Shown here one piece after another: positions 1 to 52,148 of a stretch of DNA of 64,000 nt. The translations under genes were made by a program, and so were the position numbers. This DNA is from Cubamyces lactineus. Its lineage: Eukaryota; Basidiomycota; Agaricomycetes; Polyporales; Polyporaceae. Below the pieces are notes generated by a model. It was given only the letters and a program-made list of their open reading frames with translations. It was not told the DNA's origin and ran no database searches. The stretch's first letter is position 1; each line of letters starts with the position of its first letter. The stretch spans positions 62,001-126,000 of the forward strand of contig JACDTU010000017.1 in assembly GCA_022376465.1 (NCBI GenBank). Reading direction: 5' to 3'.

Positions 1-1253
1 CCTTCGGCGCTAAGCGCCAACGGAAGCTCGACTGGTTCAAGTCTCGTCGTATCTCCTCCCACTTGATGAGGAGTTGCTCCGCATCGGCGCGTTGAACCGG
101 ATCCCTTCGCGTCATGACTTCGATCAACGGAATGAGGAACTCCATGCTGTCGTATTTCTGGTAGAGTGTCGCATATTGGGATCCATGATAAGGAAGGGGC
201 CCGCGAAGAACGCTCACCTTCTCGAACTCATGGGAATAAAGGTTTCCGAGAGCAAAAATGTCTACTTTGAAAGGGTCGTACGGAACAGTGTTAGACAGTT
301 CCGGTACTTCTCTGTCTCTTCCGACCCGGCCGAGAGCGGTTGGTGTAACCCCCGGCTGGAATTGAAGCGCAAGGCCGAAATCGATGTAGAAGTACCGGAT
401 GGAGCGTCCCGCACGAGGAAGAGGAGTGACGTGATACATTCCATCGGGGGCAAAATTCAAGCGAACTGGATGGTGACCGTCTGGATATAGCGTTTTCGCG
501 TCCATCATGATGTTAGGGATGGATATATCGCTGTTGAAGTGGTGAGCTGAGAGTCTAGGAAGATTTTGAACAGACTTACCAGTGGGCTACACGGTGTCGG
601 TGCATGAATGTCAGACCCTGGTCGGTGTGAAGTTGACAGGACGATTGTTGACCGTCGTGGCACTACGACTCACCTCTAAAGTCTGTGTGATAAAGTCAAC
701 CACGTCTCCCAGAGTGCTCCAGTCCGGATTGTTGCAAGGGCGTAGGTACGGCATTACCATGAGCGCCTTCTCGTGATCAAAGGGATCCGGTAACATCTGG
801 TGTACTGGAACACAATGATTCATGGGGTCCTTGAAAGTGGAGAGAAACTGAGCGATCTGTAGCTCCTCTGTATCCCTGGCAAAAGTCTTGATCGCAACGA
901 GCTCATTGGTCGCGATACATGTAGCGTCCATAACCTGGTAATCCTGTTTTACGGAGGGTCACTCGGAGATCGCAGACGTGCAGGCATGATGGGCGTACCA
1001 TGAGCAATATTGAGTCCTCACAATATCTCGGAGACAAGTTTGTCCCTATCCAAGACGGCCGCCAATTGGGCCTGTACCTTGGTCGTAGTAAGTACCCAGC
1101 TTCCTCCAAGTACCGTTGACGTTGTTGCCAGAAAACCTCAAAAGGGGCCAGGTTATACACGCCTTCAGCCGTCATGCGCGCGTGACGCTCTACGGCTGCA
1201 TCGGATAACACAGCATATCTAGGAGGCTTTTTAGCTGCCGGGTTTGTAGACAT
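1..1253 (-). CDS. K1: array protein kinase, C-terminus off the left edge
   Basis: Probable Ser/Thr protein kinase of an Agaricomycete family, with no signal peptide or membrane segment seen. Exons by homology with the other copies: 999-1253, 674-943, 580-617, 218-530 and 157 to the edge. About 344 residues are visible and roughly 29 C-terminal codons are missing. The start is the ATG giving MSTNPAAKK. Exon 1 holds the family block YLLRPRYRPNWRPSW and CEDS; no glycine-rich loop is recognisable. The beta-3 lysine is in ELVAIK, followed by YIDFG (DFG) and EVPELS at the APE position. The catalytic triplet, rebuilt over intron 3, reads HCD instead of HRD, as in K2. It is divergent with P1, 468 bp away. 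Family membership and kinase fold are well supported; activity and substrate are unknown. Confidence 0.88.
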
Positions 1254-1721
1254 GGGCTGAGAGCGAGAACACAGAAAGAGCAGATCTCAGCCGCCCACAC
1301 TTGGCGGCATAAACGTGGACGTAACGTGCTTATCCAAGTAAGGTAAGTACGTTCAAGTGCTATGGGTCTTCGGGCGTCTGATGCCGCCGGCGCTCAGCCT
1401 TCGCTCGCATCCATCTGAGATGCTCGGAGGCTATCCGCCATCCTGACCATCTCTCGCCTTTACGCCACCCTTTCATCGTGCATATACTTCTTGTATCAAC
1501 CGAGTGTGAAGCTGGATACATGTGTTGCCCACGTTCCTAGGACAGCGCGGCAGCGGCCGAATATCCAGGATGGCTTAAGACGATGCTCGAAGGGCTATGA
1601 TCTCTCGCGAGTGACACCCCCGCCGTCTCTAGACGCACCTGCACCATCGTACTCGGCTGCTCCCTAAGCATAGTTGTCCCCACATCTCCATCGTCAAGTT
1701 TGTCTAGAACCTTTGCTCCAG
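1254..1721. promoter_or_regulatory. Shared divergent promoter of K1 and P1
   Basis: This 468-bp gap between two divergent start codons must hold both promoters. It contains CCACGTTCCTAGGA at 1529-1542, a motif found in variant form in the same place in most other modules. No clear TATA box was seen. Confidence 0.6.
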
Positions 1722-2942
1722 ATGTCTGACTTAGGTTTCAACGTCTGGGGCACTATTGCCGCTGTCCTTGGCACAATGACTTTACCTTCCGTCTTCATCG
1801 CCTGGTTCACCACTCGTCTTCCGCGTGCACGCTTGCCTGATCTCTCCAATTTACTGCTGGAAACACTACTTCTCTTCCTCACTGGGCTACGAGAAGGACT
1901 CTACAATGACGATAGCGAATTACGTTACTTTGACACCCATATCCAGAAGTCAGTGGCCTCGGTGTCTGGGCTTGATGCTCGTCTCTCACTTTGCTAACAT
2001 TACCCATATAGTGCAAGATGTGCTGTAGAAGATGTACGCGCAGAAGTCTTTGGGATCACTACGTGGCGTCAAGATGTCAAGCATTGGTACACCGGTCTAT
2101 CAGGGAACATATCGGACATAAGTGAAGATTTGATCAGCCTCAGAGCTAGTCTGGCTGTACGTTCCTCTCTTTCCTCGTATCCCCCACACACACTGACGCC
2201 CGGGTTGCAGAAGATACAGTCTGGCAAACGTAAGCTCTTAGCAGCGCAAGGCTATCCGAGCAAACGCGCGCTATCTCCATATGCACAAGGTCGGTCTCAG
2301 CTCCGTCCGCAGTTTGCTTCAGGATGCTTATGTGTCGTAGAACTACTCCGAAAATATGCAGAGATTCTACTCTTGCCCTATTCGTCTACATGCGCTTCTC
2401 TTGCGCCTAGCGAGGGCTACCCCTCCGAGGGCCCAGCGGCACTCTCAGCGGTCAGCTCGTCGGTGGGGGTGCCCGTATCCACCCCGCTTACCAAGTCAGA
2501 TATCGGTCTCTCAGCACCCTCAGATGCCGGCTCTTCCTCCCCGACTCCTTCCCTCGCACCCACTTCGTCTCTGCTCTCCGGCGACTCTGAGCAGCGCCAC
2601 ACGATATCCGACGCGGACCTCAAGGTGCTCTTGTGCATCATCTTGTTGCTACTCTGTTCGAATTCCAGTCAAGCCGTTGAGCGCAGCCTCTCGGAGGCGA
2701 CGCAAGGCGCGTCACCCCAGTGCGTGCCTAAACCTGCACCCACCCGCGCTCTTCTTGGGTCTGGAGGTAGATTGCCACTGCGTCTTGCGAAGCGCACCGG
2801 TATCAAGGCGAGCCTGCTCTATCGCCCTATTGTCAGGCGGTCCTTGTCTACCATGGGCGTGGCATCTGCGGCTCCGCAACCTGATCCGGAGTCGCTGGTC
2901 TCTCCGGGCTGCGGCCGCGGAGATAAAGAACTCCAAGGATGA
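1722..2942 (+). CDS. P1: array partner, membrane-anchored helical protein
   Basis: Exons 1722-1948, 2012-2156, 2211-2289 and 2341-2942 give 350 aa. The ATG starts MSDLGFNVWG, the family N-terminus. Residues about 7-30 form one hydrophobic helix, followed by RLPRARLPDL, an amphipathic helix, and in exon 2 WRQDVKHWYTGLSG with a second long helix. The linker is Ser/Pro-rich. Exon 4 carries ISDADLKVLL (2604-2633), a basic stretch and PDPESLV near the end. P2 has an extra intron in what is exon 4 here; in P1 the matching donor GT has become AT and the frame stays open, so the old intron start appears to be exonised. I do not recognise a database function. Likely membrane-bound, with the bulk facing the cytosol by inference. 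Confidence 0.82.
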
Positions 2943-5239: not shown

Positions 5240-6577
5240 CTAGCTGACAAGGCTCTTGAGGTGGTTGATCCCGTGCCAGGCCACGGCCACGGTATCGTTG
5301 AGTACTCGTTCAATCGCCGGTTCGCCCTTAGGCGCTAAGCGCCAGCGGAAGCTGGACTGGTTCAAGTCTCGTCGTATTTCTTCCCACTTGAGAAGAAGCT
5401 GCTCAGCATCAGCGCGTCGGGTCGGCTCCCTCTGCGTCATCAGCTCGACGAGCGGTACGAGGAATTCCATGTTGGTGTACTTCTGAACCGACGTGAGGAA
5501 CTCATGATAACGACAAATCGCACGAATAGTACTCACCCGCTCGAACTCTTGCGAGTAAAGGTTCCCAAGAGCGAATATATCAACCTTGAAGGGATCGTAT
5601 GGAACCGTGTTAGATAGCTCTGGGACTTCTCTGTCTCGCCCAACTCGTCCAAGAGCGGTAGGCGTCACACCAGGCTGAAACTGCAGTGCAAGTCCGAAGT
5701 CGATGTAGAAGTAACGTATTGAACGGCCTGCACGAGGGAGAGGGGTTACGCGATGCAGGCCATCGGGGGCAAAGTTCAAGCGGACAGGATGGTGACCCTC
5801 TGGATAGAGCGGTCTCGCATCCATCATAATGTTCGGGATGGCTATATCGCTGTCGATGGTATGAGAACATGTAGAAGATAGAGTCCAAACCGCGCACGCT
5901 CACCAATGGGCTACACGATGACGGTGCATGAAAGTCAGACCCTGAGCGGTGTGAGGTTGACAGGATGATTGTTAACCATGATCCTGATCCAACTCACCTC
6001 TAACGTCTGCGTCACAAAATCAACTACGTCGCCTAGAGTGCTCCAGTCCGGGTCGTTGCAAGGTCGTAGGTATGGCATAATCATGAGCGCCTTCTCGTGA
6101 TCGAAGGGATCTGGTAAAATTTGGTGTACGGGTACGCAATGATTCATGGGATCTTTGAAAGTAGAGAAGAACTGAGCAATCTGAAGCTCCTCTGTATCCT
6201 TCGTGAAACTCTTGATAGCGACGAGTTCGTTGGTGTCAACCCGGGTAGCGTCCATGACCTTGTACTCCTGAGCAACGACAGATCAATCAACGATCTGGAG
6301 CGCGCCGAAGATACTTACACACCTCTAGCATGATCGAATCTTCGCAATAAGTTGGGTCCAAATTTGTCCCTATCCAAGATGGCTTCCAGTTAGGTGTGTA
6401 CCGAGGTCGCAGCAGATAGCCAGCATCCTTGAAGAATTTGTGACGCTGTTGCCAGAAAATCTCAGTCAAGACCAGATTGTAGACGCCTTCGCGTGTCATA
6501 CGCGCATAGCGCTCAGTGGCTGCATCGGACAGAAAAGCATATACAGGGAGCTGTTTAGGCTTTTGCGGTGCAGACAT
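5240..6577 (-). CDS. K2: array protein kinase
   Basis: Exons 6323-6577, 5998-6267, 5904-5941, 5537-5849 and 5240-5482, all with GT-AG introns of 54-56 nt, give 372 aa. Landmarks: N-terminal block YLLRPRYTPNWKPSW at about residues 54-68, beta-3 Lys104 in LVAIK, catalytic Asp189, Asn194, and DFG at 238-240. The catalytic aspartate and the DFG aspartate are 49 residues apart. That is about 30 more than in typical protein kinases, because of an insert rich in PLYPEGHHPVR and PLPRAGR. Codon 188 is TGC, so the triplet is HCD (a non-RD kinase), shared only with K1. It ends HGINHLKSLVS. Its closest relative in the window is K1. Divergent with P2. Confidence 0.9.
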
Positions 6578-7052: not shown

Positions 7053-8276
7053 ATGTCCGATTTAGGCTTCAATGTCTGGGGTGCCGTCGCCGCTGTCGTC
7101 GGAACGGCGGCATTGATACCAGTTATTCACGCTTGGTTCAACACACATCTTCCACGCGCACTGTTACCCACCTTATCGAGTATCCTCCAGGAAACGCAAG
7201 AGTCTTTCGTCACCGGGCTACGAGAGGGTTTGTTCACTGATGACACTGAGCTGTATCACTTCCATAACCGCATCCGAGCGTGAGTAGAACCACTTGCACG
7301 GTTGACATCGATTCGTTCGATCTGACATCTTATCCGTAGTATCAAACGCCAAGTTGGTGAAGCGCGCGCAGAGGCTCTTGAAGCCACTTCGTGGCGTCAG
7401 GACGTTAGAAATTGGTACACGGGCTTATCAAGCAAGATATCTCATCTGTGTCGCAACATAGACGATATCAGAGCCAAACTGGCAGTGAGCACCCTTCGAT
7501 TACTGGCCCTTACTGTGACATCTGACTCTCGACTGTAGAGGACACAATCTAACAAGCGGAAGCTTCTTGAAGCTCAAGGTTATCCGGACACACTCATGAT
7601 ATCTCCGTATGCACAGGGTTCGTCTCCTCTCCTAACCTGTCTGTCACGGTGCTGCGAAGTGACTCATCAAATTGCAGAGCTGCTCCGGGAGTACACGCAA
7701 GGAACGCTCCTGCCCTGTTCGTCTCTGTTCATTCCACTCGCGTACAGCTAGAATTTTCTTACTCACATTCCCCTAGCTCTGTCCGCGATCAGTCTACCGA
7801 GTGTTGAACTTACGGCGTCTGCGTCAGTGGTGCATCGCGAACTTGCGAATGGTACACGCACCGACAGCCCTAGCTCTCACCCTCAGTCTTCGCGCACATC
7901 TACTTCCTTTCTATTCAGCTACGACAGCAAGTACCATCTCATCTCCGATGCGGACCTCAAAGACCTCCTATCCCTGGCCTTGTCTTTTGTTCGCTCCCGG
8001 CAGGCTTCCGACGCCAGAGACGTCCCGTCTGTGACGGCGCAAGACGCTTCGCTCGCGGGTGCGCCGAAGCCTGCTTCAACCAACGGCCTATACGCACAGC
8101 GCCGGAGCAAGTTGGCGATACGTCGCGCGAAGCGGGCTGGCATCAAGGCAGACTGGCTCTATCGTCCCATCATTCGGCGATCCCTGGCTGCCATTGGCAT
8201 GCCGTCAGCTCACCTGCAACCCGATCCGGAGTCGTTGGTACCTCCGGGGTTCGGCTATTGCGAACAAGGGTTTTAA
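7053..8276 (+). CDS. P2: array partner, membrane-anchored helical protein
   Basis: Five exons: 7053-7279, 7340-7484, 7539-7617, 7678-7716 and 7777-8276, giving 329 aa. The fourth intron (7717-7776, GTTCGT donor, CCCTAG acceptor) is needed because the frame would otherwise stop at TAG near 7749. P1 lacks this intron. N-terminal helix MSDLGFNVWGAVAAVVG, then a second helix region WRQDVRNWYTGLSS. The tail carries ISDADLKDLL (7941-7970), a basic segment with RRAKRAGIKADWLYRPIIRR and a PDPESLVPPG end almost identical in layout to P1. The first three exons have the array lengths 227, 145 and 79 nt. Function not known. Confidence 0.85.
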
Positions 8277-9955: not shown

Positions 9956-11293
9956 CTACCTCGTGAACTTCGTCAGATGGTTTATACCCTCCCACGCGAC
10001 CGCGACGACGTCGTTGAACATCCTCCCTATCGCAGGTTCGGATTTGGGAGCCAGGCGCCAGCGGAATACGGACTTGTCCAGGGAGTTGCGAATCCTAATC
10101 CATTCTGCCAGGGCCTCGTCCGCAGAGGGGCGCATTGCAGGTTCCCGCTGCTTCATCTTCTCTATCAGAGGAAGCAAGAAATTCACGCCATGAAATTGCT
10201 GAGATCGAGACGTCAGCCGACCGATCAGCAGCGCACATCCGAACGCACCTCCTCAAACTCCTTGAAGTACAGATTCCCGAGGGCGAATATATCGACTTTA
10301 TAAGCATCGTAGGGCACATCCGATGATAGTTCTGGGACGTCCGTGTCTCGGCCAACGTCCCCAACCACGAAGTGCGATGCGCCTTCAGGGAAGCGTTGTG
10401 CGAGCCCGAAGTCGATGTAGTAGTACTTCATGCGGTGCTCCGCTCGTGGCAGAGGTGTGACTTGGTAGATAGCATCCGGCGTGTAGTCGAGGCGAACGGG
10501 ATGGTGGCCGTCAGGATACAGAGCATGTGCGTCCATCATGATGTTCTCTACCGCAATGTCGCTGAAGTCACATAAGTACCGCTTGAAGTCCAGTATCTCT
10601 AACACCGTACCGATGTACTACGCGATTTCTGTGCATGAACACAAGACCCTGGCATGGACGAAGATGTTAGTGATGAGTAACCTGAACGCGAGTCCACGAA
10701 TGTCATATACCTCTAGCGTTTGATCGACAAAGTCAATCACTTGACCTACCGTGGGGAACTCGGGACTATGGATGGGTCGGAGGTACGGCATGACCATCAA
10801 CAATAAGCCGGGATCGTATGGATCATCTAGGATTTGGAGGATGGGAACACTGTGGTTCTGAGGATCTTGCTGGGACGTTAAGAATTGGGCAACTTCGAGC
10901 TCTTGGCTGTCTTTTTCAAACGTCTTAATGGCTACAATGGAATCATCTGCTGTGCTGCGGGCGTCGATGACCTGGTGTTTCTGCGGAGACGCGATCAGCC
11001 ATTTCGGCCTGGATACGAGCGCCTATTGAGGCACTTACAAAGAGTACGATGGAGTCCTCACAATAATCAGGATGTAGTTTTGTTCCTAGCCATGAAGGCT
11101 TCCAGTCAGGCCAGTACCGAGGCCTCAAGACGTAGCCGTGCTGGTGTAGGAATTCCTGGCGCTCTCTCCAGAAGATTTCCGACGGAAGGAGACCGTAGTT
11201 ACCCTGAAGTGTCGACTTGGTATAGCGTTCAAAGTTCTTGTCGTTCAGGTAGACATAATGGGGCAGCTGCTTTTCCTTGGCCGGTGCAGACAT
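9956..11293 (-). CDS. K3: array protein kinase
   Basis: Exons 11039-11293, 10711-10980, 10611-10648, 10249-10561 and 9956-10198 give 372 aa. It opens MSAPAKEKQLPHYVYLND. The catalytic loop reads HRDIAVEN after splicing (HRD kept), and YYIDFGLAQRF gives the DFG. The C-terminal lobe includes REPAMRPSADEALAEW and ends NHLTKFTR. The kinase looks intact, but its partner P3 now starts about 3 kb away because a LINE lies between them. About 100 bp of kinase-proximal promoter, including a CCAACGTGGA segment also seen upstream of K5, remains in place. Confidence 0.9.
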
Positions 11294-11356
11294 GTGTTCA
11301 ACTTGTGTACAGCGAAGGGTGCAGATTCAAGGTCGTCCTAACCAGATGCTGTTGCG

Positions 11357-13501
11357 GTGGGAAGATCTCCAACGTGGAATCAGCGTGGTTCCCATATGCG
11401 GCATTGGGAGACCAGGCGCCCGCAACGCCAGAGAGACGCCCAAGAAACGACCCTTTGTGCGTCTTTCTATCGCATGTCCCAGGAACCCCAACCGCCATGT
11501 CCTACAGGCGGGGGCAAGGCGCGAGGTCCAGACTTTGTCAGCTACGAGGACGTCCTGCGTATTCCAAACGCGGACCTATGTGCGCTGTTCCAGGCATGCG
11601 TTGACGCGAGGATGGCCCCGTCTGTATGGCTGACGACAACACTGGCTGCAGTACAGAAGAAGGGAGCAGCGACTACGGACCCAGCTGGCTATCGTAATAT
11701 CGGACTGGAAAGCTGTCTCCTCAAGACACTCACGCTACTCATCGACCGGCGGCTGCGTGAGTGGGCGGACAGTGAAGACCTCTTCCCTCCGCACCAGAAT
11801 GGCTTCCGGGCAGGTCACCGGACAGAGAATAACGTGTTCATCCTACGCACCGTCATCGAGCAGGCAAGGGCAAATGGCCGCACAGTATGGGTGGCTTCCA
11901 TTGACCTCTCCAACGCCTTCCCTTCCGTCGATCAGGATGTCATGTGGGCCAAACTTCTCGACTGGGGAGCAAGCGGCCCTCTTCTGGACTGGCTACGCAT
12001 GCTCTATGAACGCATGACATATGTGGTCCGCTTCAATGGCGAACTCTCCGAGTTCTTTCGAGCCCTGGCAGGCATTCTTATTGGCGACCCCGCCTCCCCG
12101 GTCCTCTGGGTTCTGTTCTTCGCGGACTTCACCACACCACACTGCAGCGATGATGTTACCCTCGACGGGATCCGTGTACCGTACCTGGCACAGGCAGACG
12201 ACATCCTCCTCCTGGCCTATAGTCCAGCGGCACTACAGATCAAAATCAATGCTCTGGAACAATGGTGCATGCGTAACGGCCTGAGCATCAACGTGCGTAA
12301 AAGTCTACTCATGGCGTTCGGCCCCCTGCCACTGGTCCCACCGCTCCTCACCCTCTATGGCGTGCCTCTAACGCTTACGGCGTCAGCGACCTACGTGGGA
12401 GTCACCCTCACCACCACAACACGCAACATCTTCAAGGAGCACCGCAGCCAACAGGCGTCCAAGGCGCGGCGACTGGCGCTGGCATCGCTATCCCTGGAAG
12501 CGTACATTGGTCCACTCCCACCCGATATCGCGCGCACGCTTTACACCGCGCGCATTGAACCGCACCTACTAGCGGCAGCCATGGTGGACCTCGACGTGGA
12601 CCGCACATCGCTAGCAGAACTCGAACAGGTCCAACTGACCTTTGTACGCCGAGCACTGCAACTTCCGAGACACTCCCCAACTCTTACACCCCTCCTCGAT
12701 ATAGGCCTCTGGCCTCTACGCTTCAGACGCGCTCAGACGGCGATCAAGTATCTTGCGTATCTCGTGGACTGCCCTGCCTCTATGGCCTCAGCGGCGCTAC
12801 GAGTAGCAAGTAACCTCGCACGCGCAGGGCACCCCTCCTGGATCAGTGACCTCCACCATGCCCTCAGTGCCCTGCCGTTCCCTGTTGCGTTTGATTTCAG
12901 AGCCGCCATCACCAGCTTGTCAGCCCAGGCGATGTTAGCAAACCTCAGCACCGCGCTTGCAATGCATGCCCGCGACCACGTAACCAACGCGACCAAACTC
13001 ACCGCGTGGAGGGAAGCTGCTCTGGCTCTCCTCCCACCCTGTCCCTCGTCCGCCGCGCTATTCAAGATGCGAGAGTACCTCCGCATCCCAAACGCGCGCA
13101 TGCGGAAGGACGTCGCGCGGCTGCTCGCAGGCATCTCACCGTGTGCAGTAGAGCTACTACGCCATCATCAAGTACCCCGCGACCGCCGCATCTGCCGCTT
13201 CTGCCTATATCGGGACGTGATAGAAGACGAGCACCATATCCTCTTTGCCTGCCCGGAGCCTACCATCCAGCACGCTCGTGATGAGTTCTATATGGCCATC
13301 ATGAGTAAGGACCCAGGGATTGTCTATCTCCGCCGTCGGTGCGGGGACTGGAGCTTCTTCGGTACCATGCTGAACGACTCTACCATGGTTCACACAACTG
13401 CGGCCTTCGTCTCGACCGTGTTCGAACACCTCCGCCGCACTGAACCTCGGCTCCTCGCCACAGAGGAAGAGTTCATGGCACTCCCACTGCAGCCGCATTG
13501 A
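11357..13501 (+). mobile_element. 5'-truncated LINE (non-LTR retrotransposon) with reverse transcriptase frame
   Basis: An open frame of about 700 codons encodes a non-LTR reverse transcriptase: YRNIGLESCLLK, QNGFRAGHRTENN, SIDLSNAFPSVD, GILIGDPASP and the catalytic block LAQADDILLLA (QADD in place of YADD). The C-terminus has a Cys/His knuckle, CRFC followed by EDEHHILFAC. No endonuclease domain precedes it, so the copy is truncated. The first 40 or so codons of the frame overlap the K3 promoter and are probably not element sequence; the junction is near 11400. The 3' boundary is unclear: it may extend past the stop to the CTC repeat at 14036-14056. Reverse transcription is the family function. 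Without the endonuclease this copy is probably not autonomous. Confidence 0.85.
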
Positions 13502-17005: not shown

Positions 17006-18328
17006 CTATCTGACAAGCTTCTTCAGATGGTATATACCCTCCCATGCGACAGCGACGGTGTCGTTTACGACCCTTTCGATCGCTTGCTCAGATTTTGGGA
17101 CTAGTCGCCAGCGGAATAGTGATTCGCTCAATGTTGCGCGCTTCCTCTGCCATTCCTGCAGCGTTTGCTCAGCTGTCGGCCGCTCCTGAGGCCGCTCTCG
17201 CTTCATCAACTCGATCAAGGGTTCCAAGAAGTCCGTATTCTTATATTTCTGCAATAGCGTCAGCGTAATGTCGAAGGTGTGAAGAAGAGCACCGACATTG
17301 CCAAACTCTTTGAAGTACACGCTACCCAGCGCGTAGATGTCGACCTTGAAAGCATCGTATGGGACCGTCTCGGACAGCTCCGGGACTTCTGCTCGCCCTA
17401 CATCGCCGATGACGTATGGCGAATCACCCGGTTGGAACCAAGAAGAAACGCCGAAGTCAATGTAGTAGTAATGCACGTTACGGCCGGCACGCGGTAACGC
17501 CGATACCGGGTACAACGCGTCTGGAGTATATCCCAGACGCACGGGGTGATACCCACCCGGATACAGCGGTTTCGCGTCCATCATGATGTTGGACGTTGCG
17601 ATGTCTCTGGGAGAATTACTATAAATTTCGTTTGCCTCTTCCTCAGGACGGAGACACCTACCGATGAGCTATGTTGTGCGAGTGCATGAAGGCGAGGCCC
17701 TATCCAAAACTTAGGACAGATAGCCGTTTTCCGAGGTATCAATACCTACCTCCAATGTCTGATCGACAAACTCGATTACATCTCCTACTGTAGCGAACTC
17801 CGGATTGTTGCAAGGCCGGAGGAATGGCATGACCATCAACCCAAGACGAGGATCTTGGGGATCTGGGAGAATTTCGTGGACTTTGACGCAATGGTTCCGC
17901 GGGTCACTGATAGATGAGAAAAATTGTGCTATTTGCTCTTCCTGTCTTCGCTTAGGAAACAATTTAATAGCAACCAATTCTGAGTCTGATAGGCGCGTCG
18001 CGTCCATGAGCTGGTAATCCTGTATGAACCCGACTTGAGTACCGTAGATGTCAAAATATAATCTAGGGCTTACAATGAGAAGAATGGAATCTTCGCAGAA
18101 GGTGGGATCCAGATTCGTATCTTGCCAAGATGGCTTCCATCCAGGTCTGTACCTCGGCCTCAAGAGATAGCCACGGTCGTTCAGGTAACGAAATCGGGCT
18201 TGCCAGAACTTCTCCTTAGGCAAGAGGTTGTAGACGCCCTGCTCGGTGAGCTTCCTGCTACTTTCCAGTAAATCCGCATCCAGGAACGCATGGCGTGGGA
18301 GCTGCTTTTGCTTGACCGGCGTAGCCAT
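17006..18328 (-). CDS. K4: array protein kinase
   Basis: Exons 18074-18328, 17750-18019, 17662-17699, 17297-17606 and 17006-17248 give 371 aa. The fourth donor is GTCGGT, unusual but fixed by homology. HRDIATSN catalytic loop; YYIDFGVSSWF gives DFG followed by Val instead of Leu. K4, K5 and K6 share a one-residue deletion, GDVGRAEVPEL where the others have GDVGRDxEVPEL, so these three are a recent subgroup. C-terminus AWEGIYHLKKLVR. Divergent with P4, 433 bp apart. Confidence 0.9.
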
Positions 18329-34518: not shown

Positions 34519-35597
34519 ATGTCGGAGCTCGGCTTCAACATCTGGGGGGCGGTGGCGGGCGTCCTGGGCACCTTCACTATCATCCCTTTTGTGTGGGGTT
34601 TATTCAAGAGTCAGATGCCGTCCGGAAAGCTCGCCGCCCTCGATGCGCTGTTGAACCAGACTCAAAAGCTTCTTGACACCAGCGTTCAAGAGGGTTTGAT
34701 CATGGAAGAACGGTTCCGCTTCATGATGCGGACGTGAGTCCTCCCATCCGCTATGTGCGCAATGCAGGACTTACACATGGCGGCATTCTAGGACGAGGAA
34801 ACGCATTGATAAAGTACGGGCTGAAATATACGGTGCACATTCGCTGAAGGAAGACCTGCGCAATTGGAGGAAAGGTCTATCTACCCGCTGCTCGCTGCTA
34901 TGCGAAGAACTCGATGTCATACGCGCATCAATCGCTGTAAGTCTATCAATCTCTTATATCTTTCCAAGATAACTGAATCCGATGCTTCCGAACGACAGCG
35001 GAGCAGTGCCGAAGAGAGGGATAGATTGGATGCCTTGGGAAGGGTTCCCGAGTTAGTCGCGTCTTCGTGCTCGCCAGGTTAGCTTCTTGTTTCCCGTCGC
35101 GTCCATAACGTACTCAGAGACAAGTAGCTCGACCTATCTCGGATACATCCCCTCCTTCGCAGATGTCGGCCGCAAAGGATGTGGACGGACAGTCTGCCGA
35201 CTCGCAGACTTCTCATCAACCACCTCACACCACCACCTCGTCGTCTTCAGGAGACCAGGCTCATTCAGATGAACACCTTGAACGCGCGGAGTTTCTGGTG
35301 TTGGTACAGAAAAAGAAGAAACGCAATGTCTCGCAGCGAGCCGTGCTGCTCCGCTTTGGCAGGCACCTGTCCCTTCCTAACTGCCCTCGTACCACCCGTG
35401 GTATTGTTCTATCCACCAGGCCTCTTGCGACAGGCAATGGCGGCTTGTCTACGCTCGCCAAACACATCCTTCGTCGTTCAGATGATGCTGGTCTGCCCTA
35501 CACGGTCGGCGACATACGACATCCCTTGGCATTTGCCGCCTTGCCGCCGAGTCTATTACAAGACGGCTACGACGGCGATGACGAGAGCGATGTCTAA
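34519..35597 (+). CDS. P8: array partner, membrane-anchored helical protein
   Basis: Exons 34519-34733, 34792-34936, 34969-35077 and 35128-35597 give 312 aa. MSELGFNIWGAVAGVLGTF starts the membrane helix, followed by KLAALDALLNQTQKLLD, closer to the KLxxLD wording of P9-P10. The third exon is longer than usual (109 nt). The tail lacks the DADL motif and instead has a lysine cluster, VQKKKKRNVSQR, and an acidic DGYDGDDESDV end. Intron 2 is very short (32 nt), which is a weak point; the acceptor CCAAG is fixed only by frame and position. Confidence 0.75.
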
Positions 35598-39048: not shown

Positions 39049-39795
39049 ATGGGTATTTTTTCGTACATCTTACTCGGATTCATCCTCTTCGTCTTCCTGA
39101 GACAATTGCCGTCTCACAAACTATACGTACTCACCCAAGATTTGCAAGAAGCCCAGTCATACTTTTCCGCGCGCGTAGAGGAGGGCCTGATCAGTGGCTC
39201 ATACCTGGACGACTTCCGTGCGCGGCTAAACGAGTGAGTACGCCACACAGTCCTCCAATCGACCGGAGATAACTCATTTTGGTCGTGGCATTCACTTGCA
39301 GATTGCAGGCAGAGACGGATGCTCTACAACGATTGATGAAAAGCGTCTGGCCGTTCTCCTACCGCGACTTCTGGTACATGTTCCGTGGGGTCACCAAGAA
39401 GTGCTACAAGCTACGCGACGACGTGGAGTCTGTCCGCAACAACATCTGGGTACGCATAAGCAACGCGCTTCGTGATGTTCTCGTGCTGATCAGGGTAATT
39501 GATGCAGAGACATAGCTCCCAGGAGAAGATTCGTCTTGACATGTACAAGACGGTATCGCCCAGTCTCCGTGCTCGGTGCCCGAGTGGTACGTCCGCCATA
39601 CCCTCATCTTGGCCGCTCCTCTCATGCTGAATGATAGACTACTTCACCGATGCATCTTCGCCCGCCTCCCCAACGCTGTCCCCCGTTTCCTCCCCTTCTC
39701 CGCCGCGAACCTCGTGTGCAACAACGTTCCCAACCCCATACATTAGCCCTAACAGAAGATTCGACGCGTCGATGAAGATGCCTCGTGCGATGTGA
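39049..39795 (+). CDS. L2: orphan partner-like membrane protein
   Basis: Exons 39049-39233, 39302-39449, 39508-39586 and 39638-39795 give 189 aa. The membrane helix is at the extreme N-terminus (MGIFSYILLGFILFVFLRQL), then LPSHKLYVLTQDLQEAQ and a VEEGLISGSYLDDF region like the EEGL segment of P9-P11. Exon 2 has FRGVTKKCYKLRDDVESVR. Exon 3 is the family 79 nt. The tail is short, rich in Ser/Pro (SPASPTLSPVSSPSPP) with a basic end. Intron phases are 2, 0 and 1 as in every P gene. Orphan: the nearest kinase, K9, is tail to tail with it. Confidence 0.75.
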
Positions 39796-40594: not shown

Positions 40595-41931
40595 CTACGT
40601 AGGTCGAACGAAACGGCGTAGCCGACTGAGCCCATCCTTGGCGGCGGCAACAGTGTCATTGAAGAGCCTTTCGTAGGCAGGCTGTGACTTGAGGCTCAAT
40701 CGCCAACGTAGAGTGGATGGGGTCAGCTTCTTCCGAGCCTTCTGGAAGATCTCGATGAGTTCTACCGCAGTCGGTCGTTGAGAGGGCTGTCGCCGCTTCA
40801 TTGCGTCGACGAGTTCGCATAGGAAATCGAGGCTATGATACTTCTGAGTCCTCGACATCAGCCTAATAGCTTGCGAGTGCACCAGAGGCAACCATACCTG
40901 GACGAACTCCTTGTCAAAGAGGTTCCCGAGGGCGTATATATCAGCTTTGAACGCGTCATATGGGACGGTCGAAGACAACTCAGGAACCTCCGCGTCGCGC
41001 CCTACGTCACCTACGACATAGGGGGACGCGTCGGGTTCGAAACGAACGGACAAGCCAAAGTCGATGTAGAAGTATTTCACGGGATGATCCATTCGAAGTA
41101 GCGGCTTGAGTTCTTCGACAATGTCCGGAGAGCAGTCCGTCCAAACAGGGTGATGGCCATTCGGATACAACGCCCTGCCGTCCATCATGATATTTGGGGG
41201 GGCGATATCCCTGTGTCAACAGCTTTGACATGGTAATGTTGATCTACACGTTGGGAGAACAACTTACCGATGCGCAATTCGTTGTCGGTGTAGGAAAGCT
41301 AAGCCCTACGCTAGGTGAACATGCGGACAAGTCAAAGAAGTAAATAGCCCACCTCTAGCATCTGTGAGACAAAGTCGATAACGTCACCGACCATCACAAA
41401 TTCCGGGTCGTCGAATGGCCGGAGGTATCTCATGACCATGATTGAGCAGGTCGCGTCCAGAGAGTCCTCGAGGACGTCTACCACTTCGACGCAGTGGTTC
41501 TCTCGGTGCTCAAGGGAGGTGAGAAAGCGCGCAATTTGCAGCTCTTGGCTGTCTTTCTTGACACTCTTCATTGCAACGAGGAGGCCATCCGATTGCCGTT
41601 TTGCGTCCATCACGTAGGGGTCCTGTCAAAGTACAATGGTTGTGAGTTGCAGATGCGAATGCACTAATTCCACACTGACGCTGGACATGATGGCATCTTC
41701 ACAAAATTCGGGGTCTAGATTCGTGTCCATCCATGAGGGTTTCCACTTCGGGGAGTATCGCGGTCTTAAGTCATATCCTTGGCTCTTTAGCGAACGAAAG
41801 CGATCTCGCCAGCGAACCTCGGACGGCGTGAGATCGTACGCGCCGTCGAGTGTGAGCTCTGCTGTGCGCTTTGAGGCTTCTGGTGACTGGAAGAAGTATG
41901 GAGGAACAACCTTAGTGTCTCCCATCGGCAT
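40595..41931 (-). CDS. K9: array protein kinase, second subtype
   Basis: Exons 41680-41931, 41353-41622, 41268-41305, 40898-41210 and 40595-40843 give 373 aa. Start MPMGDTKVVPPYFF; a second ATG two codons on is equally possible. LLVAMK replaces VAIK. HRDIAPPN and MMDGRALYPNGHHPV (Gly where K1-K8 have Ala). FYIDFGLSVRF, and FKADIYALGNLF in helix F. The tail ends RRFVRPT, two residues longer than K1-K8 and shared with K10. With K10 and K11 it forms a distinct subtype. Divergent with P9. Confidence 0.9.
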
Positions 41932-42420: not shown

Positions 42421-43585
42421 ATGCTTGACGCCTTCAACATATGGGATCTCTTCATTGGGATCGTCAGCCTTCTGACGTCTGTTCCCATCGTATATCATTG
42501 CGTCACCAGACAGCTCCCTTCCAGGAAGCTCGTTACTTTATTCGATACGCTCTCGGAGACGGAAACTCTCTACACCTCATGCATCGAGGAAGGCCTCTTG
42601 AAGGACTATGAGGCTCGTACGTTCAGTACAAATTTATCTGTGTACGTTGAGAAGCAATGTTTTGTACCAGACGGCATCGCGGCACTGACCGTACTTGTTA
42701 TCTTGCAGACTTCAGCGTCGCGCCACCGACATCCGAGTGTTGGTGCAATCTGCGAAAACGTATGGAGACGACTTCAAGAATCTCGTCCAGGGCGTCACTA
42801 GACGGATCAACCGTCTGTGCAAAGATATCAAGAAGGTCCGCTCAAAAATATCAGTAAGTGGCTAGATTATGTCGCTGTGGATCCATTGTTGAACGTGGTA
42901 CAGACAACCAGCAATCGCGAGAGGGAAAGACGACAAAGGGTAGAGGCTGAACTCCGGATGGCCGAGAATCCTCTTGAAACAGGTACGTACGTTATACTCT
43001 AGGCGATATTGGACGCTGCTCACCTATATCCAAGGCCATGAACAGGACGCCGATTTTGTCACACTCTCTGATACGGTGTCATGGTGGAACCCATGGACAT
43101 ATATCAGGTGTTGCATCGACCTCATAAGCTGTGGATGTCCGTCTCGCAACGACGACGAGGACGAGGACATACCGCCCCAGCAGGCGCCCCCGCTCACAGA
43201 GGTCGTGATCCATCAGCCAACCTCTGCACAGACTAGCGCTCCACGCCTTCCTATGCCTTCTGCGCTACTCCCACCCCTCTCAGGCCCGCAGCCATCTCCC
43301 CCTACACATTTGTCTCCTGAGCGTGGCTCTTCGATCGGCTCATCTATCTCAGAACGGTCTTCCTCGACAGCGTCGAGTCGGTGGAAGATTCGTGGTACCC
43401 CTCTATCTCGTGCTCGCGCCCTCTCGCGCCACTTGCGACGCAGTCGCATCGCACGCTCGAAGACTTCGAGTCAGGCCATCGCGATTGTTTCGCTGAAGCA
43501 GGCAGTATTCTTGCCTGAACTCCCATACATGGACGATGATCCGGAGTGGGAGGATCTCGAGTCGATGACTGTACAGGTGGCGTGA
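42421..43585 (+). CDS. P9: array partner, second subtype
   Basis: Exons 42421-42641, 42709-42853, 42904-42982 and 43035-43585 give 331 aa. N-terminus MLDAFNIWDLFIGIVSLL in place of MSDLxFNVWG, then QLPSRKLVTLFDTLSETETL and EEGLLKDYE. Exon 2 ends CKDIKKVRSKIS and exon 3 has NRERERRQRVEAEL, a highly charged helix. The tail has a tryptophan/cysteine stretch (WWNPWTYIRCCIDLISCGC), a long Pro/Ser linker, a basic segment RALSRHLRRSRIARSK and an acidic PEWEDLE end shared with P10. The DADL motif of P1-P6 is absent. Confidence 0.83.
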
Positions 43586-44709: not shown

Positions 44710-46046
44710 CTACGTGGGCCGAACGAAGCGGCGAAGCTGGCTGATGCCATCCTTCGCAACGGCGACGGTGTCATACAAGAGTCGCTCGTACGCTGGTTCT
44801 GACTTCGAGCCTAACCGCCAGCGGATGCCCGAAGGGGTCAGCGTCTTCTTCGTCTTCTGAAACATCTCGACGAGCTCGTCTGCGGTTGGCCGTAGCGGAG
44901 GTTGCTGGCGCTTCATGACATCGATCAGCGAGCGTAGGAACTCGAGGCCGTGGTATTTCTTACTCGAGCACATCAGCGACGCGAGACGTGGGACACGTGT
45001 GAGACGAGTGATGCTCACCTGGGCCAACTCTTTGTCGAAAAGGTTTCCAAGGGCATAGATGTCCGCCTTGAACCCGTCATATGGAATAGTAGAGGATAGC
45101 TCAGGGACTTCTGCATCCCGCCCTACATCACCTACGACGAGCGTGGACGAACCCGGTGCAAAACGGACCGAGAGTCCGAAGTCGACGTAGAAGTACTTGA
45201 CCGGGTGGTCCATGCGATGTAGTGGAACAAGATCCTCGATTGCGTCAGGGGAGCGATCTCTCCAGATCGGATGATGCCCTTGAGGATACAACGACCGTCC
45301 GTCCATCATGACGTTCGGAGGGGCTATGTCGCTATTCACAGCGATGCGTGAGGTCTGGGACAACTGTGACAGATACAGTTGCATACCGATGCGCGACGCG
45401 CTGGTTATGCAGGAAAGCCAGGCCCTGGTGTGTGTCAGCAAGACTAGAACGACCATGTAAGGAGCGTCTTACCTCTAACATCTGGGAAACGAAGTCGACG
45501 ACATCGCCCACCATCGTGAGCTCGGGGTCGTCCCAAGGTCGGAGATATTGCATGACCATCAGCGAAATGGTGGGGTCGAGGGGATCGTCCAGTACATCGA
45601 TCATAGGGACACAATGGTTGGCGTCGTGTTGCACCGAAGAAAGGAACCGTGAGATCTGGAGCTCCTGGCTCCCCTTCTTAATGGTCTTGATTGCAACAAG
45701 TTGCCCGTCAGTTTGACGTGTAGCGTCAATAACGTCTGGGTTCTAAAAGATACCTGTCAGCGAAGGCCGTGGTACATCAATAGCGGTCGAACCGCCGGAC
45801 ATTTAGGACGACTGAGTCCTCGCAAAAATCAGGGTCGAGGTTTGTGCCAGTCCATGAAGGTTTCCACTTTGGGTGGTATCGAGCCCGTAGTTTATATCTT
45901 TTCTTGAGCAGGTATTCGTAACGATCTTTCCAGGGTACCTCGCACGTTATGAGGTTGTAGACGCCATTGTTGGTGAGGTCGGCTTGCCGTCGAGCAGCGT
46001 CGGGCGGCAAGTAGATATAGCCAGGAAGTTTCTTCTGTTCAACCAT
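44710..46046 (-). CDS. K10: array protein kinase, second subtype
   Basis: Exons 45801-46046, 45473-45742, 45387-45424, 45019-45331 and 44710-44958 give 371 aa. The N-terminus MVEQKKLPGYIYLPPD is three residues shorter than in K1-K6. The first donor, GTCCGG, is weak but no better site keeps the frame. QLVAIK, HRDIAPPN, FYVDFGLSVRF and GDVGRDAEVPELSS. It ends RRFVRPT like K9. Divergent with P10 across an enlarged 689-bp gap. Confidence 0.88.
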
Positions 46047-46735: not shown

Positions 46736-47857
46736 ATGTCCACCGTCGCTTACGCTCGATGGGATGTCTTTGTCGGCGTCGTCGGCGTGTTGACTGCTAT
46801 TCCGGTCCTTATCGCACTGATTGCCACCCAACTGCCCTCTAGGAAGCTCAAGGGCCTCGACGAGGCGTTGATGGAGACGGAAACCGTTCTCAATGAGTCT
46901 ATTGAGGAAGGCATCTTGAGAGACTATCAGATTGGGGCATTCAAAGAGCGCCTTGAACTGTGAGGGTAGACGATTCAGTGGCACACGCACTTAACTCATC
47001 ACTCTCCTTAATAGCCTGCGCAATAGGACCACTGAAGTGCGTGCTCGAGTCCACGCCGCGCGGACGTGGTCGGAGGATCTCGAGAACTGGGTACAAGGGC
47101 TGACGAGCAAAATTACCCAAATCATCAAGGATGTCAAAGAAGTTCGCTCGACCATATCGGTAAGCGACTCTTTGGTCCTCGTATTGGTCTATCGCTCATG
47201 CAGTTGGTCGTAGACGACGAGTACCCGCGAGCGGGAGGAACGTGAACGTGCAGAAGCTGCACAACGCCTCGTCGCTGTAGGTGGCGTCAACGCCACTGGT
47301 GAGCATGGCTTCACTGTATACCATCTACCGCTAACGGGTTTGTATATCAAGCTGATACAACATCAGACGCGCGTACCCTTCCTAGGTTATGTTTTTTCTT
47401 GTGGCGACTCCTGGAAACACTATCTTTACCCACGCGCTGGTCGCCACACTCTTTCTCGACTCCTGCAGGAGGCAGCGTCATTGCATTTGATTCCATTCCT
47501 ATGGGTCACGATCCTACTCTAGCCTCACCGATAGGCACATCTGCCAATCCTCCCAATCCCCCTACTGCTCGAGACGCACCATCCAACCACACCCCGTCCG
47601 CATTGCCCTCCGATACAAGCTCCTCTCAGTCATCCCGGCATAGGCGGAAGTGGCGTGGCAGTGCTTACTCTCGGACTCGCGCATCGTTCCGATACATACG
47701 TCGCTGCCGCAAGCAGCGTACCGAAGTCGGATCGCTCGATGTGATCATGGTTTCCATAGCGGAGCTCTCCTCCTTCGAGCTGCTCAAGGCGGATGACGAT
47801 GATGCTTCAGGTGAGTGGGAGGATCTCGAAGCGGCAAAGCTGCGGATCGTCGTTTGA
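46736..47857 (+). CDS. P10: array partner, second subtype
   Basis: Exons 46736-46959, 47015-47159, 47214-47298 and 47367-47857 give 314 aa. The last acceptor could instead be the AAG ending at 47351, which adds five residues and better fits a CTAAC branch near 47328. N-terminus MSTVAYARWDVFVGVVGVL, then QLPSRKLKGLDEALMETETV and EEGILRDYQ. Exon 2 includes TWSEDLENWVQGLTSKI; exon 3 is almost entirely charged (TRERERE-type). The tail has LCFFLWRLLETL, a Pro/Ser linker, a basic RTRASFRYIRRCRKQR segment and GEWEDLE near the end. Confidence 0.8.
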
Positions 47858-48903: not shown

Positions 48904-50229
48904 TTAGCCAACCATACGTTTGAGGTTGTTGAGTCCCGAGCGCGCGACTGCGACAGTATCGTTGAACAAGCGCTCGTACGGCTGCTCAGTTCGAAGGACA
49001 AGCCGCCATCGAAGTGTAGTGTCGTGTAGTGTGGCTCGTAGCTGGGTAAGCATCTTGAGCAGTTCGTGTGCAGGCGGTCGAAGGTCGGGATCGCTCTGCT
49101 TCATCATCTCGATGAGTGGACGGAGGAAATGGACGTTCTTCCATTTCTACATGAAACGGAGTCTGTGAGCGGTACGCACAGGATTTGTGGTACAACGCGA
49201 CTTGCCTGCTCAAGGTCTCGATCGAATATGTCTCCCAGAGCATATACGTCTGCCTTGAAGGCGTCATAGGGTACCGTCGAGGACATCTCCGGGACGTCCG
49301 TGCGTTGTCCGACCTTGCCAACGACCAGCGGTGACGCTCCTTCAGCGAACCGTACGGACAGGCCAAAGTCGATGTAGTAGTACGTCACTGGGTGGTCCAT
49401 ACGGGACAGAGGGTGTGCGTCATGTATCGCGTCTTCCGTTTGATGTATTAGTACGGGGTGGAAACCCTGAGGATAGATGGGCGATCCGTCCATCATGATG
49501 TTTGTTGGCGCGATATCCCTGCAGCGGTCGTCAGCACGACAGCTTATGTTGAAATTGTCATATTCCTAACCTGTGGGCGATTCGATGTCGATGCATGAAG
49601 GTAAGGCCCTATGGGTGTTCAACGGGATTCTTTTGCATTCTCATCGTGTGCCCACGTACCTCCAGAGTCTGCATAGCGAAGTCGACAACATCTGCTACGA
49701 TTTGAAATTCGGGGTTGTCGTACGGTCTCATGTAGGGCATAACAAGGAGAGACAGTTCGGAGTCGAGAGGGTCGTCAAGGACTTCCAGGACAGATATACA
49801 GTGGTGGTCAGAGCCTCCAACAGAAGCTAAGAACCGAGCAATGTCCAGTTCGCGGCTCTCTCTACGGACTCTCTTGATGGCAACGAGCTTGTTATCGACT
49901 TGACGTCGTGCATCCATTATACGGGAGTCCTACAGGCTTCTAAGTCAGGTACGCTACACCGAAATTGAGTCTAGATGACTTACGTTGAGGACGATGGAGT
50001 CCTCACAAAAATCCGGGGCGATATTCGTTCCTATCCATGATGGCTGCCAATCCAAGGCGTATCGTGGGCGAAGGGTATACCCCTTCTTGTCTAAAAACTC
50101 CCGACGCTTTCTCCACTCGAGCTCGGCCGGAAGAAGCTTGTAGGACCCTTTCCGAGTCTGTTCTGCGTAGTATTGTGCGATTTCAGGCGAAAGATAGACA
50201 TAACTGGGAAGTTTCTTGACATCTGACAT
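48904..50229 (-). CDS. K11: array protein kinase, second subtype
   Basis: Exons 49984-50229, 49660-49929, 49571-49608, 49206-49518 and 48904-49146 give 369 aa. Intron 4 starts GCAAGT, a GC-AG intron with the usual GC-donor consensus; every other array intron checked uses GT. KLVAIK, HRDIAPTN (the arginine codon is AG+G across intron 3), YYIDFGLSVRF, and GKVGQRTDVPEMSS with Gln-Arg replacing Arg-Asp. The tail ends NNLKRMVG and lacks the RPT of K9/K10. Divergent with P11, with the longest promoter gap of the array (861 bp). Confidence 0.9.
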
Positions 50230-50524: not shown

Positions 50525-50568
<44 letters not shown>

Positions 50569-51090
50569 GCCCACTTTTCCGGGTCTGTCTCCTCACGCTG
50601 ACCTCGTTTCTATGATGATACTGCCTCCGTCACCTCAGGCAGTGTACTCCGCATGGGTATGGCGCATAGATAACCTATGTGAGTGCCTTACTGCAGCAGA
50701 TCTTCCACGGTCTCATCGATTATTATTGATGCTGTCCTACGTATGATCATACTGGGTCGACACGGACTAGGACAAACTAGAGACGATAGCACCTCGTCTT
50801 TGAACTGATATCTCCGCGCTCGTATCTTCGTGATGTCTAGAGCCACCATGTGCGTTCAGCGCATCCAGGCCTCCAACCGGCTACCGATGCCCTAATGTAG
50901 CATAACACTTGGAGAAACCGCTACACACAACGTAAATTGCTAGCGAAAGCTGTCTTGATCATCGATACGCATGCTTTACACGCGGCACGGCGTTAATAAG
51001 GCCGCTGAGAGGCTCCTAGGGCTGATCTGTTTCGACTCATCCTCTGGACTCCCGCTCCCTGCTATTCCCCGAGTCCGTCAGACTTACACC
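50230..51090. promoter_or_regulatory. Shared divergent promoter of K11 and P11
   Basis: CCTAGG at 51015-51020, 71 bp before the P11 ATG, and a TC dinucleotide tract in the middle of the region. Confidence 0.5.
50527..50565. repeat. TC dinucleotide microsatellite
   Basis: About 39 bp of uninterrupted TC on the plus strand inside the K11-P11 gap; a length-variable tract that could alter promoter spacing. Confidence 0.9.
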
Positions 51091-52148
51091 ATGATTAGCG
51101 GCTTCACCGTGTTTGACGTTGTAGTTGGCGTTACAGGCCTACTGGCCTTGATTGGGCAGTGTTCGTACTGGATCATCAAGAGGAGACTTCCCGCCACGAA
51201 GCTGCGCGTCCTCGAAGATACCTTGTCCGATACACAATCGCTACTGACTACTTGCGTAGAGGAGGGCCGACTGGGTGGTGGCAACGCGGCGCAACATTTC
51301 CGGGCCCGTTTGGACGAGTACGTCTGTTTAAGATGACTGTTACCAACCCGCTGACTCCTACGCCACTCCACCTCGCAGCATCAAGGAGAAGGTCAGCGAT
51401 GTCAGGCTGGAGCTATCTCGCGCAAGCACATACATGGATCACTTTAAGACCATAATGACCGGGCTACCACGGCGGATAGATCGCCTATGCCAGGAGACTA
51501 CTACAATTCGTGTGCAAATATCTGTGCGGCTTCGTCGTCATATTCTCAGTTACGCTTCAGCTGATGCTCGTAATTAGATCACCAGCTCAGAGCGACAACT
51601 GCCTGGATCACAGGTTGCTGCTATCCCGACAACGGATCCGTCTCTTGCGGATGGTAGGATTTCACTGTTGTCGCCGTCAGTCGTCGCTGAGCAGGCGTCG
51701 TATAGTGAGCGCCCGCTCCGAGACGCCCAACCTCAACGACGCTATTAGCGCTGGTCCTGCCACTCTCGGTGCTAGTGTCCCAGTTCTCACTAGTTCTGAA
51801 GTCACATCAAGCAGTCAATGCACTGTCTGGGACAATGACGTCTGCACATCGCACCGAGAGGCTGCCGTGGGCGCCAACGTCGACGCTGCAGTTAAACGCT
51901 CCGCGCAGCCTGACACCGCTATGCTCGTGTTGTCCAGCGTGTCGTCGGAGCCCACAAGCCTCATGCGGGAAGATGGGAGAGGCGACGGCTCCAGCCTCTC
52001 TGAGCCTCTTCTTCCTAACACTAAGGATACCATCCTTCCCTCCTATCGGCCGACAACGAAGCGTATGCTTCATCGCAAGAAGCGGCTGAATGACGCCGTG
52101 GCTCGCACTCGTGCATTTGCCCGCTTCTTGCGTAGGTCCTGCGCATGA
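51091..52148 (+). CDS. P11: array partner, second subtype
   Basis: Exons 51091-51317, 51379-51523, 51578-51653 and 51706-52148 give 296 aa, the shortest of the paired partners. N-terminus MISGFTVFDVVVGVTGLLAL, then KLRVLEDTLSDTQSLLTTC. Exon 2 has TYMDHFKTIMTGLPRRIDRL. The tail is Ser-rich and ends with a basic RLNDAVARTRAFARFLRRS segment; both the DADL and EWEDLE motifs are missing. Last gene of the array. Confidence 0.8.

What the first reader, a model, noticed from the sequence alone, without database searches (positions are those of the whole stretch)
1..52148. Tandem array of divergent kinase and membrane-protein pairs
Ten intact kinases on the minus strand alternate with ten partner genes on the plus strand, always head to head and K left of P. 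The same arrangement is repeated over 52 kb without any other host gene inside. Such a strict two-gene unit suggests that K and P work together and are co-expressed from one promoter. I know the kinase family as common in Agaricomycetes, but know of no described system built from this pair.
Basis: partly seen in the sequence, partly recalled or inferred. Interest (0 to 1): 0.92.

Follow-up and report, generated by a model that had tools for sequence, protein, structure and literature searches.

The report
Repeated kinase and membrane-protein gene pairs
In a wood-decay fungus, a kinase gene and a gene for a small, probably membrane-anchored helical protein have been copied together, back to back, many times and to several places in the genome, often with a mirror-image DNA signal between them, which suggests an undescribed two-part signalling or defence system.

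Summary
The window is Cubamyces lactineus C9:62001-126000. The core observation holds: ten kinase genes (K) each stand head to head with a gene (P) for a protein with an N-terminal hydrophobic helix and a predicted helical bundle. Alternation is not strict: two further P-like genes without a K lie at 36.9 and 39.0 kb, P5 looks broken, an RT splits pair 3, and the array runs on leftwards. The pair is a real unit: all 17 K loci found in the 36.3-Mb genome (a 3' fragment apart) have a divergent P-type neighbour, 13 clear, 3 probable, 1 weak. K and P distances agree (Mantel r 0.88, 12 pairs). Nine of 11 named close P hits from other species share a contig length with a listed K. New: seven gaps carry AACGTGG-N(190-220)-CCACGTT, each half facing its own gene; seven of the genome's nine such sites are here. 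K keeps kinase residues; P evolves faster and has no convincing Pfam match. Best reading: a co-regulated membrane-kinase module, possibly recognition-like. Expression, interaction and function are untested.

The parts
1..1253 (-). K1 kinase (3' end outside the window); HCD in place of HRD
1722..2942 (+). P1
   Evidence: exons after the second uncertain
5240..6577 (-). K2 kinase (HCD)
7053..8276 (+). P2
   Evidence: later exons uncertain
9956..11293 (-). K3 kinase
11342..13501 (+). reverse-transcriptase ORF, stop to stop (RVT_1), between K3 and P3
14303..15476 (+). P3; N-terminal domain clear, end uncertain
17006..18328 (-). K4 kinase
18762..19879 (+). P4 = C8Q73DRAFT_794109
21607..22927 (-). 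K5 kinase
23377..24469 (+). P5; exon 2 probably broken
26791..28114 (-). K6 kinase
28561..29661 (+). P6
31124..31354 (-). K 3' fragment without the rest of the gene
32721..34045 (-). K7 kinase
34519..35597 (+). P7
36921..37402 (+). P7b: P-like gene without K (first two exons; rest not resolved)
   Evidence: weak profile match, 11.8 bits; strong exon signature
39049..39515 (+). P7c: P-family gene without a divergent K (first two exons; rest not resolved)
   Evidence: (55.6 bits with a profile built without it)
40595..41925 (-). K8 kinase
42421..43585 (+). P8; later exons uncertain
44710..46046 (-). K9 kinase
46736..47857 (+). P9; later exons uncertain
48904..50229 (-). K10 kinase
51091..52148 (+). 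P10; later exons uncertain
   Evidence: the end is also that of the finding
1312..1535 (.). mirrored element pair AACGTGG...CCACGTT between K1 and P1
6641..6854 (.). mirrored element pair between K2 and P2
18406..18620 (.). mirrored element pair between K4 and P4
22999..23220 (.). mirrored element pair between K5 and P5
28196..28402 (.). mirrored element pair between K6 and P6 (a second K-facing copy at 28207)
34133..34365 (.). mirrored element pair between K7 and P7

Best explanation
K and P form one heritable two-gene module. Shown by sequence: a protein kinase with its catalytic residues kept stands head to head with a gene whose protein has one N-terminal hydrophobic helix, a predicted helical bundle (about 136 residues in P4) and, in P4, a mostly disordered tail. 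The module duplicates and disperses as a pair. In seven gaps the same short element faces each gene at a set distance. Inferred: the element co-regulates both genes; P sits in a membrane with bundle and tail in the cytosol, holds its own K there and is a substrate or switch for it; fast change in P with a conserved K lets each pair answer to a different signal. The array therefore most likely works as a set of parallel membrane-kinase pathways, plausibly immune or recognition-like, as tandem, fast-diverging pairs often are.
For: 17 of 17 K loci found have a divergent P or P-like neighbour: 11 in the C9 array, C29 and C17 are clear; C43, C42a and C42b are probable (same intron phases, exon 2 of 139-142 nt; the C42b and C43 partners are public gene models P0135 and P0137); C1 is weak. 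In a whole-genome search the C43 partner has the C42a partner as its only match elsewhere (E 0.034). K-P distance Mantel r 0.88 (12 pairs, p 5e-5) and 0.93 (16 pairs, the four distant ones included). 9 of 11 named close P hits of other species share a contig length with a listed K of that species; in T. pubescens the tags are 1194 (K), 1195 (P), 1197 (K). Mirrored element: both halves in 7 of 12 gaps, against a mean of 0.01 and a highest value of 2 in 500 Markov shuffles; 15 of 16 heptamers of the window fall in K-P gaps; 9 mirrored sites in the genome, 7 of them here, 2 in the reversed control. dN of K 0.06-0.12 against 0.25-0.34 for P in the K1/K2/C29 comparisons. P4 model: residues 11-140 at block pLDDT 80-94. 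An N-terminal hydrophobic stretch in 14 of 14 close P proteins.
Against: No expression, interaction or phenotype data. K8-K10, C42a, C42b and C1 gaps lack the heptamer; C29, C17 and C43 have it only on the K side; K3 has the K-side copy and its exact P-side copy lies at 466 bp, out of place. P-like genes occur without K at 36921, 39049 and C9:55346. Co-duplication of neighbours alone would give congruent trees, and K3, K7 and K8/K9 are placed differently in the two trees. The C42b partner finds no other partner in a whole-genome search. dS is near saturation or not computable in most comparisons, and dN/dS for P, where computable, is 0.16-0.42, so there is no sign of positive selection. The immune role rests on analogy only.
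Confidence: 0.6

Rival explanations
1. P is a membrane-inserting cell-death executioner of the MLKL/HeLo/CC type and K is its trigger or brake, so each pair is a two-gene necroptosis-like switch.
Confidence: 0.17
2. Hitch-hiking: K and P are unrelated in function; tandem duplication by unequal exchange copies both because they are neighbours.
For: Spacers 97% identical between units 1 and 2 show exchange between units. P-like genes without K exist.
Against: The pair persists at six places on five other contigs, down to K identities of 29-51% per matched exon, and in seven gaps the mirrored element faces both genes.
Confidence: 0.13
3. Toxin and antidote: P is a membrane-active poison and K the kinase that silences it; arrays persist by addiction or drive.
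For: Every K locus has a P while P evolves faster.
Against: P-like genes stand without a divergent K, which an untamed poison would not tolerate unless they are dead or another K covers them. No toxicity data.
Confidence: 0.06

Closest known systems
Head-to-head gene pairs with bidirectional promoters
   Same: Divergent neighbours with a short gap (the usual definition, start sites not more than 1000 bp apart, is in the abstract start of PMC2648788, seen in the search listing). Here the gaps were measured between start codons.
   Different: One pair type is repeated in an array and dispersed, and in seven gaps each gene has its own facing copy of one element.
AgaK1 / FunK1 fungal kinase families
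   Same: Lineage-expanded kinases of mushrooms; AgaK1 and FunK1 are said to be expanded in Coprinopsis and Laccaria (passage of PMC4215621). One AgaK1 of Coprinopsis (CC1G_09799, PF00069) is listed as changed on challenge with E. coli and B. subtilis (table passage of PMC4704728).
   Different: K scores on the general Pfam kinase models, not on a fungal-kinase family. Whether K is AgaK1 could not be tested. No partner gene is mentioned in the passages read.
HeLo / HeLo-like / MLKL N-terminal domains and CC domains of plant NLRs
   Same: Helical bundle with an N-terminal membrane-active helix; such domains number nearly 2000 sequences in basidiomycete NLRs (passages of PMC9815663).
   Different: No sequence match; fold comparison inconclusive.
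het-S/nwd2 type paired genes of ascomycetes
   Same: A two-gene cluster with a membrane-targeting cell-death partner (passages of PMC12881547).
   Different: That pair uses an NLR and amyloid signalling; the Pfam scans of K and P showed no NLR domain, and amyloid motifs were not sought.

Membership tests
Protein kinase superfamily (PF00069) | Pfam score above the cut-off | tested here: met
   4 of 4 K-family proteins (P0016, P0017, P0030, K_C1): 34.5-49.9 bits against 31.7. An early K6 model that lacked an exon scored 22.6, below it.
Protein kinase superfamily (PF00069) | Catalytic Lys, HRD Asp and DFG Asp | tested here: met
   10 of 10 in the window; HRD is HCD in K1 and K2.
FunK1 (its Pfam fungal-kinase model is recalled, not from a call) | Match to a fungal-specific kinase profile | tested here: not met
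   Only PF00069, PF07714 and a spurious TssC row appeared, for 5 proteins scanned.
AgaK1 | Membership of the curated Coprinopsis family | not testable with these tools
   No AgaK1 sequence at hand; name seen only in papers.
HeLo / HeLo-like / MLKL_NTD / Goodbye | Profile match | tested here: not met
   16 P-type proteins against Pfam-A at E <= 10: no such family; six unrelated families matched 1-2 members each, best E 0.0095.
HeLo / MLKL / CC four-helix bundles | Shared fold | tested here: inconclusive
HeLo / MLKL | Membrane permeabilisation and cell death | not testable with these tools
   Needs expression.
Bidirectional gene pair | Divergent genes less than 1 kb apart | tested here: met
   9 of 10 window gaps 433-861 bp between start codons; K3-P3 is 3.0 kb with an RT ORF. 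Transcription starts are unknown.
Bidirectional gene pair | Correlated expression | not testable with these tools
   No RNA data available.

The most novel reading that the evidence does not exclude
A basidiomycete innate recognition system made of many divergent pairs, in which each P is a membrane-inserting effector or sensor and its own K the switch, all raised together by one transcription factor that reads the mirrored CCACGTT sites: a fungal two-gene counterpart of RIPK3-MLKL, built independently.
Probability: 0.13. Interest if true: 0.92.

Novelty: new variant of a known kind. Interest (0 to 1): 0.7.

Why it matters
Mushroom-forming fungi carry large lineage-specific kinase families for which I know of no described partners or substrates. 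A gene that travels with the kinase at every locus found here names the likely partner, and the mirrored promoter element gives a direct, testable handle on when the module is switched on. P is a family without a convincing Pfam match: of the C. lactineus P-type genes only P4 and two distant partners turned up in the protein database, although those searches were not exhaustive. If the pairs are recognition modules, they would give basidiomycetes a non-NLR system for self or microbe sensing.

Tried and rejected
Fold library: the P4 model gave no Foldseek match at E <= 0.001. HeLo or MLKL folds did not appear in the rows shown, which does not exclude them. The model of the distant partner was too weak to search with (mean pLDDT 58).

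Profile comparison of single distant partners with P: C43 (probability 0.2) and C1 (0.4) at chance, C42a (1.6 over 18 columns) barely above the best of 60 shuffles (1.2), C42b above them (11.3). The joint profile of the four gave probability 49.5, P 1.7e-4, without a shuffle control of its own. A profile of close P proteins gave E 0.015 for C42b and nothing useful for C42a and C1; C43 was not reported (Z set to 1000). I therefore lean on exon phases, public gene models, and call C43, C42a and C42b probable and C1 weak. The C42b partner matched only itself and a C11 stretch at E 0.067 that I did not follow up.

The exon-signature scan found C43 and C42a but not C42b or C1 at the threshold used. 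In the first 53 kb of the window it found seven of P1-P10 (P1, P3 and P5 were missed), both new P-like genes and one false hit at 4641; 0 hits in 48.2 kb of control.

Mirrored element in the other gaps: no 7-mer lies in both orientations in more than 2 of the 4 K8/K9/K10/C17 gaps or of the 4 far gaps; no shuffles were run for this. Longer pattern CCACGTTCCWARRWWW: one genome match, too strict. Telomere repeats in the first 600 bases of C9 and C29: none. Kinases at C41 and C17:239 kb are outside the family and showed no P. AgaK1 papers give a lead, not a test. Metagenome scanning was capped at zero, so synteny in other species rests on contig length and locus tags.

Rows dropped or weak: K1 is partial; P5 enters as a forced splice lacking part of exon 2; K0/P0 are not in the Mantel test; K3's gap is not in the 12-gap shuffle test; P0010 and P0134 (unnamed fragments) and the distant-type P0136 of C. 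menziesii (no listed K with its contig length) are not in the 9 of 11 count; 120 of 628 K hits were listed.
Full report
What the window is. G000:C9:62001-126000 of a 36.3-Mb, 43-contig genome. P4 is identical over 314 residues to C8Q73DRAFT_794109 of Cubamyces lactineus, on a contig of 818610 bases, the length of C9.

Gene models. In P the first two introns sit at fixed phases (2, then 0) and exon 2 is 142-145 nt, P5 excepted. All K keep VA[I/M]K, H[R/C]D...N, DFG and [A/V]PE. K1, K2 and the C29 copy read HCD. Four of four K-family proteins pass the Pfam protein-kinase cut-off. The best solved relatives are ordinary protein kinases at weak scores (best E 1.8e-9). P has no convincing Pfam match: none for P6 at E <= 1, and among 16 P-type proteins only scattered rows, best E 0.0095 in 2 of 16.

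Departures from a strict array. P5 has no ordinary splice that leaves exon 2 open. A K 3' fragment lies at 31124-31354. A reverse-transcriptase ORF lies between K3 and P3. A scan for the P signature (N-terminal hydrophobic stretch, phase-2 intron, exon of 124-151 nt, good splice sites) had 0 hits in 48.2 kb of control sequence. In the first 53 kb of the window it had ten: seven of P1-P10 (P2, P4, P6, P7, P8, P9, P10), one false hit at 4641, and two new P-like genes at 36921 and 39049. A profile built without them scores 55.6 bits for the gene at 39049 and only 11.8 for the one at 36921. Neither has a divergent K; no K match lies between 34.1 and 40.5 kb. To the left of the window lie K0 (degenerate), P0 and an unpaired P at C9:55346.

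The pair elsewhere in the genome. Searches with three different K proteins end at the same 17 loci, the 3' fragment, and in one of them a distant kinase on C41 (E 2.5e-4). Beyond the 11 loci of the array, C29 (closest to K2/P2) and C17 (K closest to K10, P best matched by P10) are clear divergent K-P pairs. At C43, C42a and C42b, where K matches K7 at 29-49% per exon, the divergent neighbour has the same two intron phases and an exon 2 of 139-142 nt. The C42b and C43 neighbours are public gene models, P0135 and P0137. In the whole genome the C43 partner matches only itself and the C42a partner (E 0.034); the C42b partner matches itself and, weakly, a C11 stretch (E 0.067, not followed up). The C1 neighbour is weak. 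The genome hits of P6 (E <= 0.001) and of the P9 N-terminal domain (E <= 1) all lie at the array, C29 or C17.

Co-inheritance. K and P distance matrices correlate at 0.88 for 12 close pairs and 0.93 for 16, at the floor of 20000 permutations; 0.82 with K1 and C29 left out, 0.79 for K1-K7 alone. The trees share the groups (K1,(K2,C29)), (K4,K5,K6), (K10,C17), K8-K10 with C17, and the four distant loci. They differ in the place of K3 and K7 and in whether K8 and K9 are sisters. P changes faster: dN 0.25-0.34 against 0.06-0.12 for K in the K1/K2/C29 comparisons, with dS high. No computable dN/dS value reaches 0.5.

Other species. 628 K relatives have E <= 1e-10, and the 120 listed come from polypores such as Trametes, Cubamyces, Pilatotrama, Lentinus and Cerioporus, often several on one contig length. 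Of 11 named close P hits outside C. lactineus, nine share species and contig length with a listed K; the other two lie on contigs of 5.7 and 8.2 kb. The distant-type hit P0136 of C. menziesii has no listed K on its contig length. TRAPUB_1194 (K), 1195 (P) and 1197 (K) are numbered neighbours in T. pubescens. These are proxies for linkage, not read synteny.

The mirrored element. In a k-mer count over ten groups of gaps, CCACGTTCC appears in seven; the best 9-mer of 30 Markov shuffles averaged 2.8 and never passed 4. All five exact copies in the window lie in K-P gaps. The core CCACGTT occurs 16 times in the window, 15 of them in the K-P gaps, which make up 7798 bases. In K0, K1, K2, K4, K5, K6 and K7 one copy faces P at 141-198 bp from its ATG and one faces K at 58-92 bp. 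That makes 7 of 12 gaps, against a mean of 0.01 and a highest value of 2 in 500 Markov shuffles. AACGTGG-N(190-220)-CCACGTT has nine places in the genome, seven in these gaps; the reversed control has two. Part of this is common descent of the gaps, but the flanking DNA is largely diverged (mean column identity 42% in an alignment of nine), so the element seems to have been kept. K8, K9 and K10 lack it; C29, C17 and C43 have only the K-facing copy.

What P looks like. AlphaFold gives P4 helices 4-32, 34-57, 63-89, 93-101 and 104-136, with block means of 80-94 for residues 11-140, and a mostly disordered rest. An N-terminal hydrophobic stretch is present in 14 of 14 close proteins (best 19-residue mean 1.7-2.8) and in four distant ones (1.3-2.1); most of the close sequences scored were N-terminal parts only. 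Basic residues tend to follow it (alignment), so by the positive-inside rule (general knowledge) the bundle should face the cytosol. Fold matches are those of any helical bundle; NLR CC domains are among them, but not above designed bundles.

Mechanism. Shown: pairing, orientation, co-inheritance, catalytic residues, the element, faster change in P. Inferred: co-expression, membrane anchoring of K through P, phosphorylation of P, pair specificity, recognition role. The nearest empirical hint for a biotic role is one Coprinopsis AgaK1 kinase listed as changed on bacterial challenge (table passage), and membership of K in AgaK1 is untested.

Literature. Nine answered searches listed no paper whose title or abstract start names such a kinase and membrane-protein pair. 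I saw search listings, and passages of PMC9815663, PMC12881547, PMC4704728, PMC13214342 and PMC4215621. Subscription journals are not covered.

Noticed in passing
window 3208-3595 and 8532-8919: Spacer stretches behind P1 and P2 are 97% identical over 388 bp (99% over 300), far above the genes (K1/K2 82% protein); the 300-base part has no other match in the genome: recent conversion or unequal exchange.
   Followed up: partly
window 20850-21113, 26042-26311, 30590-30647: A second spacer repeat behind P4, P5 and P6; its 95-base core is 97% alike in two copies, 93% over 58 bases in the third, and found nowhere else in the genome; function unknown.
   Followed up: partly
K1, K2 and L042:8255 (C29): One K subclade reads HCD instead of HRD (non-RD type); K1 and K2 keep the other catalytic residues checked, while C29 has VTIK.
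   Followed up: no
window 11342-13501: Reverse-transcriptase ORF within the K3-P3 gap.
   Followed up: no
window 47959-48144: Very weak K-like stretch between P9 and K10 (E 0.014), perhaps a remnant.
   Followed up: no
window 60084-63222: NmrA-like and ABC-transporter ORFs right of the array.
   Followed up: no
P0014, P0015, P0022: Public gene models that hold two K kinases in one protein, probably fused neighbours; annotation of these arrays in databases seems unreliable.
   Followed up: no
L049 (C41:1341090 and 1343110) and L050 (C17:239184 and 241364): Two same-strand kinase-like matches at each place, outside the K family, without detectable P.
   Followed up: partly
G000:C11:287498-287758: Weak match (E 0.067, 27%) to the C42b partner P0135, not at a known K locus.
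   Followed up: no
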